Of a stretch of 64,000 nucleotides of DNA, positions 5,147-8,009 are shown one piece after another. The notes under the pieces are model-generated. The model ran no database searches and was not told the origin of the DNA. It was given only the letters and a program-made list of their open reading frames with translations. Position 1 is the first letter of the stretch. Each line of letters starts with the position of its first letter. This stretch comes from Micromonospora sp. NBC_00389. GTDB lineage: Bacteria > Actinomycetota > Actinomycetes > Mycobacteriales > Micromonosporaceae. The stretch is from assembly GCF_036059255.1 (NCBI RefSeq), contig NZ_CP107947.1, positions 558,001-622,000 of the forward strand. The letters are read 5' to 3'. A program made the position numbers and the translations under genes.

Positions 5147-5673
5147 CGCTCCAGATCGGCCGGGCCGGCGCCCCTCGTCGATATCGGTGAGGGGTGCAGG
5201 GCCGCCAGTCGCCGCGCCCAGTCGCCGCCGACCGGGTCCAGCTCGACCACCCGCGTGTCGTCGTCGCGGCGGTCGATGCGCACCCGCAGGTGGGCGTCGA
5301 CCAACTGCTCGACCAGGCCCTCGCCCCACTCGACCACGGTCACCGACTCGTCGATCGAGGCGTCCAGGTCCAGATCGTCGATCTCGGCGCGCGGGTCGGT
5401 GGCGTCGCCCAGCCGGTACGCGTCGGCGTGCACCAGGGCCACCCGACCGCCCCGGGCCGGGTCGGGTCGGTGCACCCGGGCGATCACGAACGTCGGCGAG
5501 GTGATGTCCCCGAGAACCCCGAGCCCGGCGCCGATGCCCTGGGTGAGCGCGGTCTTGCCGGCGCCCAGCGGGCCGGTCAACAGCACCAGGTCACCGGCGC
5601 GCAGCAGCCCGGCCAGTTGGAGGCCGAACTCCCGAGTGTCTTCGACGGCCGACAGCTTGACGACGTGACTCAC
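5143..5673 (-). CDS. tsaE: TsaE, tRNA t6A biosynthesis ATPase
   Basis: The protein has 176 residues starting at the GTG at 5673, with GGAGG four to five bases upstream and a GTGA overlap with the hydrolase stop. The P-loop is GPLGAGKTALTQG near residues 35-47, followed by the family motif SPTFVIARVH and the HADAYRL segment. TsaE is the small ATPase that resets the TsaB-TsaD complex during threonylcarbamoyl transfer to tRNA. The extended C-terminal acidic/Arg-rich region is longer than in E. coli but usual for actinomycetes. It is translationally coupled to the upstream hydrolase and ends at the boundary of the accessory segment. Confidence 0.95.
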   Translation of the reverse strand: MSHVVKLSAVEDTREFGLQLAGLLRAGDLVLLTGPLGAGKTALTQGIGAGLGVLGDITSPTFVIARVHRPDPARGGRVALVHADAYRLGDATDPRAEIDDLDLDASIDESVTVVEWGEGLVEQLVDAHLRVRIDRRDDDTRVVELDPVGGDWARRLAALHPSPISTRGAGPADLER

Positions 5674-6776
5674 CGTTCCTCCGCGCTCTCCAGTGACTCG
5701 AGGAACCGCGCCAGCGCGGCGTTGACCTCGTCCGCGTGCTCCAGCATCACCACGTGTCCGCTGTCCTGGATCTGCACGAACTCGGCGTGCGGCAGCCGCC
5801 GGACGATCTCCTCGGAGTGGGTCACCGGAGTGATCATGTCCTTGTCGCCGACCACCACGAGCACCGGTGTGTCGGCCAGCGCCGCGAGCGCCGGGAAGCG
5901 CGAGTGGGTGGCCAGGGTCCGCAGATAGCGGGTCACCGTGTCGGCCGACGTCCGGGAGTTCATCATCTCCACGTAGGACACCAGTGCCGGGCTGGGCTTG
6001 CGGGTGCCGAAGCCGTACTTGCGGGTAAGCAGCCAGGCAACGTTCGAGGTCGACTTGCGGGCCTTGTCGATCACCGGCCCGCCGTACCGGGTGGCATTGC
6101 TCACCATGAACAGCACCGGGCCGCCGACCCGCCCGAGCAGCGCCGGCGCGACCAGCTTGGTCTCCGCGATCAGCCCGCCCGAGGTGGCCATCAGCACGGT
6201 GCCCACCACCCGGTCCCCGAACAGCTCCGGGAACAACTCGGCGAACGCCATGATGGTCATGCCGCCCATCGAGTGGCCGACCAGCACCAACGGCCCGTCC
6301 GGGGCGGTCCGGTCGATCACCTGACGCAACGTCCGGCCGAGCACCGCGAGGTCGTACTCGCCGGTCTCCAGCCGGCCGGACCGGCCGTGACCGGGCTGGT
6401 CGTACGCCACGATCCGGTAGTCGCCGCGCTCGGCGAGCATCTGCCGCTGGAAGTGGAACGTGCCCATGTCCAGGCAGAAGCCGTGCACCAGCACCACCGT
6501 CGGATGCCCGGAGACCGGGCGGGTCGGCTCGACCACCTCGACGTGGATGTCGGTGCCGTCCGGCAGCTCCAGCCGGAACGCGTCGTCGTACCACTGCTCG
6601 TCGAACTTCTCGTGCGCGTAGCGGTCGGCCGGGTCGGCCTTGAGCCGGCGGACCAGGGTGCGCTCGGTCGCGACGCCGGCGGCCAGGCCGGCCGCGGCCA
6701 CCCCGACCGCGGCGCCGACGATTCCGGCGACCCGGCCAGCCGCGGTCCGCGGACGCGGGATGCGCCTCGCGCTCAC
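5670..6776 (-). CDS. Membrane-anchored alpha/beta hydrolase
   Basis: The protein has 368 residues. An N-terminal hydrophobic stretch (AGIVGAAVGVAAAGLAAGVA, about residues 17-36) looks like a membrane anchor or uncleaved signal. The fold motifs are in order: LVHGF oxyanion region, DQPGHGRSG, nucleophile elbow GHSMGG with Ser169, acid strand VVVGDKDMITP, and the catalytic His in SGHVVML. The substrate is unknown. A hydrolase in this position, between alr and tsaE, is usual in actinomycetes. The GTG start lies inside the first copy of the 59-bp repeat and is coupled to a short upstream reading frame. Its stop overlaps the tsaE start. Confidence 0.88.
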   Translation of the reverse strand: MSARRIPRPRTAAGRVAGIVGAAVGVAAAGLAAGVATERTLVRRLKADPADRYAHEKFDEQWYDDAFRLELPDGTDIHVEVVEPTRPVSGHPTVVLVHGFCLDMGTFHFQRQMLAERGDYRIVAYDQPGHGRSGRLETGEYDLAVLGRTLRQVIDRTAPDGPLVLVGHSMGGMTIMAFAELFPELFGDRVVGTVLMATSGGLIAETKLVAPALLGRVGGPVLFMVSNATRYGGPVIDKARKSTSNVAWLLTRKYGFGTRKPSPALVSYVEMMNSRTSADTVTRYLRTLATHSRFPALAALADTPVLVVVGDKDMITPVTHSEEIVRRLPHAEFVQIQDSGHVVMLEHADEVNAALARFLESLESAEER

Positions 6777-6896
6777 GGTGCCACCTCGGTTCGCGACTGC
6801 GGGGCTCGCAACCCCGGCTCACTCCTCGCGCTCACGGTGCCACCTCGGTTCGCGACTGCGGGGCTCGCAACCCCAGCTCACTCCTCGCGCTCACGG
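6768..6896 (-). repeat. Tandem 59-bp repeat across the alr/hydrolase junction, with two coupled mini-ORFs
   Basis: Units 6768-6826 and 6827-6885 differ at one base, and an 11-nt partial third unit follows (6886-6896). Each unit can fold at GGGGTTGCGAGCCCC. On the minus strand each unit carries GAGG seven bases before a GTG. Reading from these gives two 20-codon frames (6832-6894 and 6773-6835). The alr stop, both mini-ORF stops and the next starts all form GTGA overlaps in series, ending at the hydrolase GTG. The repeat and overlaps are seen directly; translation of the mini-ORFs is unproven. Confidence 0.85.
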
Positions 6897-8009
6897 CCGC
6901 TCGCCGTCGTAGACCCGGGGCACCCGGGTGCCGCCGAACCGGGTGACGATCTCGTAGTTGATGGTGCCGGCCGCTTCAGCCCAGTCGTCGGCCGTCGGCT
7001 CGCCGTTGGCGCCGCTGCCGAAGAGCGTCGCCACGTCGCCGTCGGCCACCGGGTCGTCGCCGCAGTCCACCACGAACTGGTCCATGCAGACCCGTCCGGA
7101 GATGGTCCGCCGCGCGCCGGCGAGCTGCACCGGCCCGCTGTTGGACGCGTGCCGGGGCACCCCGTCGGCGTAGCCGAGTGGCACCACGGCCAGGTTGGCG
7201 TCGGCCTCCGTGGTGTAGGTATGCCCGTAGGAGACACCGGTGCCGGAGGGCACCCGCTTGGTGAGCATCACCCGGGCCCGCGCGGTCATCGCCGGGCGCA
7301 GCCCGTACGTCTCGCCGGCCACCGGGGAGAGGCCGTAGACGGCCAGGCCGGGGCGGACCAGGTCGAAGTGGGTGTCCGGGCGGGTCAGGGTCGCCGCCGA
7401 GTTGGCCAGGTGCCGCCAGCGCGGGCGGAGCCCGGCCCGCTCGACCATGGCCAGCCCCTCGTGAAAGACGGCCAGTTGCCGGTCGGTGGTCGGGTGGCCG
7501 GGCATGTCCGCGTACACGAAGTGGCTCCACACGCCGACCACCTCGACCAGGCCGTCGGCCTGCGCCTTGGCGGCGGCGTCCAGCAGCGCCGGCCAGTCCG
7601 CGACGGTCGCCCCACCCCGGGAGAGCCCGGTGTCGATCTTCAGGTGCAACCGGGCCGGGCGCTCGGCGCGCCGGCTCGCCTCGACCATCTCGTCCAGTTG
7701 CGGCAGGCTGGCCGCGCCCAGATCCACCCCGGCGCTGACCCCCTCGTGCAGCGGCAGCCCGGGAGCGAGCAGCCAGGCCAGCACCGGCGCGGTCACTCCG
7801 GCCCGGCGCAGCGTGAGCGCCTCGTCGAGGGTGCAGACACCGAGCCAGTCCGCCCCGGCGTCGAGCGCGGCCCGGGCGGCCGGAAGCATGCCATGGCCGT
7901 AACCGTCGCCCTTGACCACCGCCATCAGCTCAGCGGTGGTGCCGGAGCGGAGTCGGCTCACGTTCTCACGGATCGCGTCAAGATCGACGCGTACCTCGGC
8001 CTGCCACAT
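6891..8009 (-). CDS. alr: Alanine racemase
   Basis: The protein has 372 residues, a normal length. It is a PLP enzyme interconverting L- and D-alanine for peptidoglycan. Lys33 in AVVKGDGYGHG is the cofactor lysine, and Tyr261 in GVSYGHTY is the opposite-face catalytic base. HLANSAAT, GLAVYGL and GRVCMDQFVVD are further family motifs. The ATG start at 8009 follows the conserved pattern of a short residue run before VDLDAIREN. It lies between nnr and the hydrolase in the core block. Its TGA falls in the partial repeat unit and overlaps a GTG. Confidence 0.97.
   Translation of the reverse strand: MWQAEVRVDLDAIRENVSRLRSGTTAELMAVVKGDGYGHGMLPAARAALDAGADWLGVCTLDEALTLRRAGVTAPVLAWLLAPGLPLHEGVSAGVDLGAASLPQLDEMVEASRRAERPARLHLKIDTGLSRGGATVADWPALLDAAAKAQADGLVEVVGVWSHFVYADMPGHPTTDRQLAVFHEGLAMVERAGLRPRWRHLANSAATLTRPDTHFDLVRPGLAVYGLSPVAGETYGLRPAMTARARVMLTKRVPSGTGVSYGHTYTTEADANLAVVPLGYADGVPRHASNSGPVQLAGARRTISGRVCMDQFVVDCGDDPVADGDVATLFGSGANGEPTADDWAEAAGTINYEIVTRFGGTRVPRVYDGERP

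What the first reader, a model, noticed from the sequence alone, without database searches (positions are those of the whole stretch)
6768..6896. Tandem 59-bp repeat builds a relay of three GTGA stop/start overlaps
The alr stop overlaps the start of a 20-codon frame, whose stop overlaps the start of a second 20-codon frame, whose stop overlaps the hydrolase start. Each start has a GAGG seven bases upstream. A 59-bp unit gives this only because 60 coding bases plus the GTGA overlap close exactly. The repeat therefore could expand or contract without breaking translational coupling, and could tune hydrolase output by copy number.
Basis: partly seen in the sequence, partly recalled or inferred. 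Interest (0 to 1): 0.7.

Follow-up and report, generated by a model that had tools for sequence, protein, structure and literature searches.

The report
Repeat cassette inside operon stop/start overlaps
A short DNA repeat, found across the soil bacterium genus Micromonospora, sits where one gene's stop codon overlaps the next gene's start codon, and it occurs there in zero to several copies while mostly keeping the layout that lets ribosomes pass from gene to gene.

Summary
On the minus strand alanine racemase (alr), two 20-codon mini-ORFs and an alpha/beta-hydrolase are chained by three GTGA stop/start overlaps made by a 59-bp tandem unit. One detail is wrong: GAGG precedes two of the three starts.

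The pair belongs to a dispersed repeat family: 33 arrays at E<=0.001 in this genome, and units followed by GTGAGC in 119 of 121 genus genomes. Close named relatives are Micromonospora. Copies lie in sense orientation in operon junctions. The relay reaches the downstream frame in 79 of 84 sampled arrays.

At the orthologous alr/hydrolase junction, 89 of 118 species have a bare xTGA overlap and 14 carry 1-4 units. All 14 start at the alr stop and reach the hydrolase. galE-galK and tsaB-rimI repeat the pattern; at rph-rdgB 3 of 8 filled sites do not close.

Tuning of hydrolase output is untested. It works like the mycobacterial MIRU (recalled; the paper library failed), but no MIRU sequence was compared.

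The parts
6891..8009 (-). alr (alanine racemase), upstream gene; its TGA stop is bases 2-4 of the first unit
   Evidence: ORF; Pfam PF01168/PF00842
6836..6894 (-). repeat unit 1 (59 bp), begins at the GTGA that contains the alr stop
6777..6835 (-). repeat unit 2 (59 bp), one mismatch from unit 1
6765..6776 (-). partial third copy GTGAGCGCGAGG, which is the hydrolase start
6832..6894 (-). mini-ORF 1, 20 codons, start overlaps the alr stop
   Evidence: relay
6773..6835 (-). mini-ORF 2, 20 codons, stop overlaps the hydrolase start
   Evidence: relay
6819..6881 (-). interleaved 20-codon ORF from the inner GTGA of unit 1 (one base after GAGG, probably a poor start: inference)
5670..6776 (-). alpha/beta hydrolase, downstream gene of the relay
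   Evidence: ORF; Pfam PF00561
5670..5673 (-). next junction (hydrolase/tsaE): a bare GTGA overlap with GGAGG upstream and no repeat

Best explanation
The 59-bp unit is a copy of a short dispersed element, present throughout Micromonospora, that occupies xTGA stop/start overlaps between co-directional operon genes. It brings its own GTGA, an open frame of about 20 codons and usually a purine-rich ribosome-binding stretch, and it ends just before the next xTGA. The upstream gene therefore stops on the element's GTGA, a ribosome can reinitiate, translate about 20 codons, and meet the next gene's start at another xTGA. Whole units are gained and lost in tandem, probably by recombination or slippage between the direct repeats, and the bare overlap can be regained, so coupling geometry is kept in most states. 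Shown: location, orientation, geometry, copy-number differences between species, likeness of units within an array. Inferred: translation of the mini-ORFs, reinitiation, the amplification mechanism, and the way new sites are reached. The most likely role is a coupling-neutral repeat that the operon tolerates, with at most a modest effect on downstream expression.
For: Dispersed family; 119/121 genus genomes; 25/25 genus genomes (own included) and 0/16 genomes of other families among 41. Own-genome census: 32 of 33 arrays read; downstream gene same strand 32/32; upstream same strand 24, opposite 1, undecided 7; upstream stop on the unit's TGA 18/24. Sample of 86 arrays from 16 genomes: downstream same strand 84/84 decided (2 undecided), upstream same strand 79/81 decided (5 undecided), stop on the unit's TGA 66/79, relay reaches the downstream frame 79/84 against one third by chance. 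Orthologous bare and filled sites: alr-hydrolase 118 junctions with 0-4 units, 113 closing; 38 further named loci, 35 closing, three of them filled (L262, L275, L287) and closing; galE-galK 29/29, tsaB-rimI 30/30, rph-rdgB 25/30 closing. Local amplification: 16-nt tails 94% alike within arrays (51 pairs), 43% between (1035 pairs). In the one annotated record seen, genes end and start exactly at the unit's borders (M. terminaliae plasmid pLB1). Arrays of 60- or 57-bp units can still close as one long ORF (L154; L241, L217).
Against: No expression, ribosome-profiling or peptide data. Five of 84 sampled arrays do not close (L032, L196, L219, L247, L252); at rph-rdgB three of eight filled sites do not (L382, L383, L399) nor two unfilled ones (L386, L393); five alr junctions do not (L085, L121, L168, L173, L180), nor three named ones (L285, L302, L337). 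In 13 of 79 sampled arrays the upstream gene does not stop at the first TGA of the array (in 5 of them 59 or 62 bases later); 10 of the 79 closing arrays close by in-frame fusion. That the element brings the ribosome-binding site is clear only at alr: genome-wide the first start of an array, at the upstream gene's own end, already has a match of 4 or more bases in 52 of 79 arrays, against 65 of 79 for the last start. The sample is partly selected: 59 of 86 arrays came from a pattern requiring GTGAGC at both ends of a unit (no frame required) and 7 were long arrays picked by hand. Species share descent, so the counts are not independent.
Confidence: 0.82

Rival explanations
1. Copy number is a selected dial: each added unit changes reinitiation losses and may add a ribosome-binding site, so unit number sets the output of the downstream gene.
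For: Copy number differs between species at one junction, 0-4. SD-like matches of 4 or more bases before the hydrolase start: 7/14 filled against 5/89 bare junctions (Fisher p about 1e-4 treating species as independent).
Against: 89 of 118 species have no unit and a bare overlap at this junction; filled and not-filled need at least 13 changes on the gene tree of 115 rows, which also fits neutral turnover; no expression data.
Confidence: 0.28
2. The mini-ORFs make functional peptides.
For: An open frame of 19-21 codons is kept in most closing arrays.
Against: Variation in 46 distinct cores is about equal over the three codon positions (summed 0.70, 0.89, 0.65; without the variable stretch 0.22, 0.30, 0.22); arrays of 60, 57 and 61 bases fuse or change the peptide.
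Confidence: 0.05
3. Local slippage only: the unit arose here by duplication of the junction, not from a dispersed family.
For: Tails are locus-specific and alike within arrays; tandem expansions of other sequence at GTGA junctions exist (L138, L425).
Against: The same 47-base core is found at many different junctions in the genome and genus.
Confidence: 0.05
4. The repeat acts as an RNA structure, terminator or processing site and the ORF geometry is a by-product.
For: An 8-bp hairpin can form in the consensus core when folded alone (-10.1 kcal/mol).
Against: No Rfam match at E<=1; the whole consensus unit folds less stably than mononucleotide shuffles (-17.2 against mean -22.5, sd 3.1); the inverted-repeat scan of the window's copies finds only 6-base arms; sense placement at xTGA is not expected from it.
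Confidence: 0.08

Closest known systems
MIRU, mycobacterial interspersed repetitive units (Supply and colleagues 1997; recalled, look-ups of the paper failed)
   Same: As recalled: short repeats, dispersed and in tandem, sense orientation in operons, small ORF whose ends overlap the stop and start of the flanking genes, sites of the kind DTGA, variable copy number.
   Different: Found here in Micromonosporaceae: all 24 positive genomes of 200 in the order belong to the window's family (at most 4 candidates per genome scored). Unit mostly 59, also 54-62, against 77/53 recalled for MIRU. Two GTGA sites per unit. No MIRU sequence was compared.
REP/BIME and ERIC elements (recalled)
   Same: Short, many copies per genome, between genes.
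   Different: As recalled those are palindromic and not tied to stop/start overlaps; here placement is in one orientation relative to the genes and structure is not above shuffles for the whole unit.
Ordinary xTGA (ATGA/GTGA) translational coupling
   Same: The bare state of the same junctions: 89 of 118 alr-hydrolase, 26 of 29 galE-galK, 22 of 30 tsaB-rimI, 16 of 30 rph-rdgB.
   Different: Here one or more relays of about 20 codons are interposed.

Membership tests
MIRU (defining features recalled) | Short tandem and dispersed repeat in intercistronic regions | tested here: met
MIRU (defining features recalled) | Contains a small ORF overlapping the stop of the upstream and the start of the downstream gene | tested here: met
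   in the window; of sampled arrays 79/84 close (10 by fusion) and 66/79 upstream stops lie on the unit's TGA
MIRU (defining features recalled) | Sense orientation relative to translation | tested here: met
   84/84 decided downstream genes, 79/81 decided upstream genes
MIRU (defining features recalled) | Occupies DTGA overlap sites, seen as bare overlap in relatives | tested here: met
   four junctions
MIRU (defining features recalled) | No strong dyad symmetry | tested here: inconclusive
   whole consensus below shuffles, but the core alone can form an 8-bp hairpin; only 6-base arms in the window copies
MIRU (defining features recalled) | Sequence homology with mycobacterial MIRU | not tested
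   no MIRU sequence was fetched or compared
REP/ERIC palindromic repeats (recalled) | Imperfect palindrome forming a stable stem-loop | tested here: inconclusive
   as above
Variable-number tandem repeat | Whole-unit copy-number differences at one locus | tested here: met
   0-4 units between species; within-species variation not tested

The most novel reading that the evidence does not exclude
The element is a targeted, reversible ribosome hand-over cassette. Its two GTGA sites make a ribosome entering in any frame either stop on a restart site or read through into the next unit. It installs itself only in stop/start overlaps by machinery not yet known, can leave without a trace, and its unit number is used in evolution to set the expression ratio of neighbouring operon genes genus-wide.
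Probability: 0.2. Interest if true: 0.82.

Novelty: new variant of a known kind. Interest (0 to 1): 0.6.

Why it matters
It gives a natural experiment on translational coupling: the same operon junction with 0, 1, 2, 3 or 4 near-identical relay steps in related species, with similar series at three other junctions. It suggests that MIRU-like insertion into stop/start overlaps exists outside mycobacteria. In the one annotated record seen such a site is simply a 55-bp gap between genes, so it is easily overlooked. Where the copies come from is open and now testable in a large genus.

Tried and rejected
Chance repeat: rejected. One-off local duplication: rejected as sole origin. RNA family: no Rfam hit at E<=1. 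RNA structure: whole consensus not above shuffles, a local hairpin possible. Peptide selection: no codon-position signal. Phage or plasmid carriage: no match in phages; one plasmid record with two places, of which I looked at one, between two metabolic genes. 'Each start has GAGG': rejected for the first start. Independent insertion at every filled alr junction is not claimed: the 13-nt tails there are 70-79% alike across species against 42% for 66 sampled arrays, so an old insertion with repeated loss, or exchange between species, is as likely as repeated gain. Literature: of twelve searches sent four were answered (0, 0, 1 and 685 papers; of these I saw the one row and the 20 rows listed, none on such an element by title or abstract start), eight failed; no paper was opened. 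Nothing is claimed about what is or is not in print.

Full report
What is in the window. The minus strand reads alr (8009-6891), mini-ORF 1 (6894-6832), mini-ORF 2 (6835-6773) and an alpha/beta-hydrolase (6776-5670); each neighbouring pair shares the four bases GTGA. A tandem repeat of period 59, 2.2 copies and 98% matches covers 6765-6896. Pfam supports alr, the hydrolase and, downstream, TsaE. The hydrolase/tsaE junction is itself a bare GTGA overlap.

It is a family. The junction DNA matches 32 places in the genome, 40 candidates having been scored. The 47-base core pattern, with up to 3 mismatches, matches 17 places against 0 for the reversed-pattern control. A 65-base unit query gives 51 matches at E<=1, 40 of them at E<=0.001 in 33 arrays; these are lower bounds, since only part of the candidates is scored. 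Of 41 genomes (own included) 25 have matches: all 25 of the genus and none of 16 from other families. Of 121 genus genomes 119 have at least one unit followed by GTGAGC. Of 121 genomes drawn from the family 57 have matches at E<=0.001, in 26 of 44 genera (at most 7 candidates scored per genome). Of 200 genomes of the order 24 match, all in the window's family (at most 4 candidates scored per genome).

Anatomy of the unit. Core GTGAGCGCGAGGAGTGAGC-cgggtt-TGCGAGCCCCGCAGTCGCGAAC, then a locus-specific tail of roughly 9-16 bases, rich in G and A about 8-12 bases before the next start. The frame beginning at the first GTG is open for 20 codons; the other two frames stop on the outer GTGA or on an inner GTGA 13 bases further on. 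In the 86-array sample the spacings were 59 (40), 60 (17), 56 (9), 62 (5), 61 (3), 57 (3) and 54 (1). Of 46 arrays with two or more units, 32 have a spacing of class 2 modulo 3, 15 of class 0 and 1 of class 1; two arrays, L221 and L245, have two classes.

Context. A codon-usage score trained on the window decided the strand and frame of the flanking genes. Own genome: 32 of 33 arrays read; downstream gene on the same strand in 32 of 32; upstream gene same strand 24, opposite 1, undecided 7; the upstream stop is the unit's TGA in 18 of 24, in three others the inner GTGA, in three elsewhere. Wider sample: 86 arrays from 16 genomes, 20 of them from the own genome, 59 from regions found with a pattern that asks for GTGAGC at both ends of a unit but for no frame, and 7 long arrays that I picked; L197, L199 and L258 gave no usable array. 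Downstream same strand 84 of 84 decided (2 undecided), upstream same strand 79 of 81 decided (5 undecided), stop on the unit's TGA 66 of 79 and 59 or 62 bases later in 5 more, relay landing in the downstream frame 79 of 84. By source the relay closes in 19 of 20 own arrays, 6 of 7 picked ones and 54 of 57 others. If the frame were random a third would be expected; the binomial tail is below 1e-30, though arrays are not independent. Ten of the 79 close by in-frame fusion, not by overlap. Arrays with 60- or 57-base spacing can still close as one long ORF whose last unit has a different length (L154; L217 and L241), while L247, with spacing 60, does not; the 61-base array L205 closes through the inner GTGA sites. 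In one annotated record, M. terminaliae plasmid pLB1, the listed genes stop and start exactly on the borders of a unit.

The same junction in other species. The hydrolase is found in 121 of 121 genus genomes. In 118 the end of alr could be read with it (not in L103, L185, L190). 89 have a direct xTGA overlap. 14 carry the element: seven with 1 unit, four with 2 (the window among them), two with 3, one with 4, counting units after the alr stop. 10 have another spacer with one mini-ORF of 6-33 codons. 5 do not close: L085, L121, L168, L173, L180. All 14 filled junctions start at the alr stop and reach the hydrolase; in L154 the units are 60, 60 and 59 bases and make one 60-codon ORF. Of 80 named loci, 2 lacked alr and 38 had junctions not seen before; 35 of these 38 close and 3 do not (L285, L302, L337). 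Three of the 38 are filled, L262 (M. trifolii, 1 unit), L275 (3) and L287 (1), all closing. Of 22 loci named as other genera than Micromonospora and Salinispora (two of them unnamed or binned MAG records) among the 38, none has the unit; 17 have the direct overlap, 4 a mini-ORF relay of other sequence (L321, L323, L329, L339), 1 does not close (L337). On a quick tree of the flanking genes (115 rows) the filled state needs at least 13 changes. The tails at this junction are more alike across species (70-79%) than tails of the sampled arrays (42%), so old insertion with repeated loss, or exchange between species, may be part of the story.

Three more junctions, each in 31 genus genomes searched. 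galE-galK: 29 junctions read, 29 close, 26 bare, 3 filled with 1, 2 and 3 units (in the second the last unit is fused in frame to galK). tsaB-rimI: 30 read, 30 close, 22 bare, 6 filled with 1 (four species), 3 and 4 units, 2 other spacers. rph-rdgB: 30 read, 25 close; 16 bare; 8 filled, of which 5 close, while L382 ends in TGATG, L383 has a cut last unit and L399 has CTGA at the stop; 4 other spacers close; two unfilled spacers (L386, L393) do not. The gene names galE, galK, rph, rdgB, tsaB and rimI are my reading of the translations, not a family search.

How it grows and whether it is selected. Tails are 94% identical within arrays and 43% between arrays, so extra units most likely come from local amplification. 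Ribosome-binding matches of 4 or more bases precede the hydrolase in 7 of 14 filled and 5 of 89 bare junctions; genome-wide, however, the first start of an array has such a match in 52 of 79 cases and the last in 65 of 79, so the element is not the only source of such sites. Variation in the core is alike at the three codon positions, so no peptide selection is seen. The whole consensus folds no better than shuffles, though an 8-bp hairpin can form in the core. Whether new sites are reached by a transposase, by recombination at GTGAGC, or otherwise, is unknown; sense-only placement in overlaps argues for targeting or strong filtering.

Verdict. The second (tuning) is open. MIRU and REP features are recalled from memory because the paper library failed.

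Noticed in passing
own genome G000:C1, places (L027, L031, L038, L039): A second subfamily of the unit with a different middle (GAGGAGTGCAGCGAAGCGGAGCCCCGCAG) occurs at 5 places, two of them a tandem pair.
   Followed up: partly
L425 (tsaB-rimI) and L138 (alr-hydrolase): Tandem expansions of sequence unrelated to the element at GTGA junctions also keep the relay closed, so GTGAGC overlaps may be prone to slippage in general.
   Followed up: no
L323 (Couchioplanes), L329 (Paractinoplanes ovalisporus), L321 (Catenuloplanes): Other genera have long relay ORFs (136; 53 and 46; 59 codons) between alr and the hydrolase, L329 with what looks like its own direct repeat.
   Followed up: no
G000:C1:557718-557780, just outside the window's left end (L008): Another single unit sits at the tsaB-rimI junction of the same gene neighbourhood; a relative (L401) has 4 units there.
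   Followed up: yes
L262 against L077: In one species the alr stop is ATGA and the hydrolase start GTGA, in another the reverse, so the exact insertion point relative to the original overlap is ambiguous.
   Followed up: no
L153 and L136, end of alr: The last alr codons there look like a unit tail, so a further unit may have been absorbed into the alr frame.
   Followed up: no
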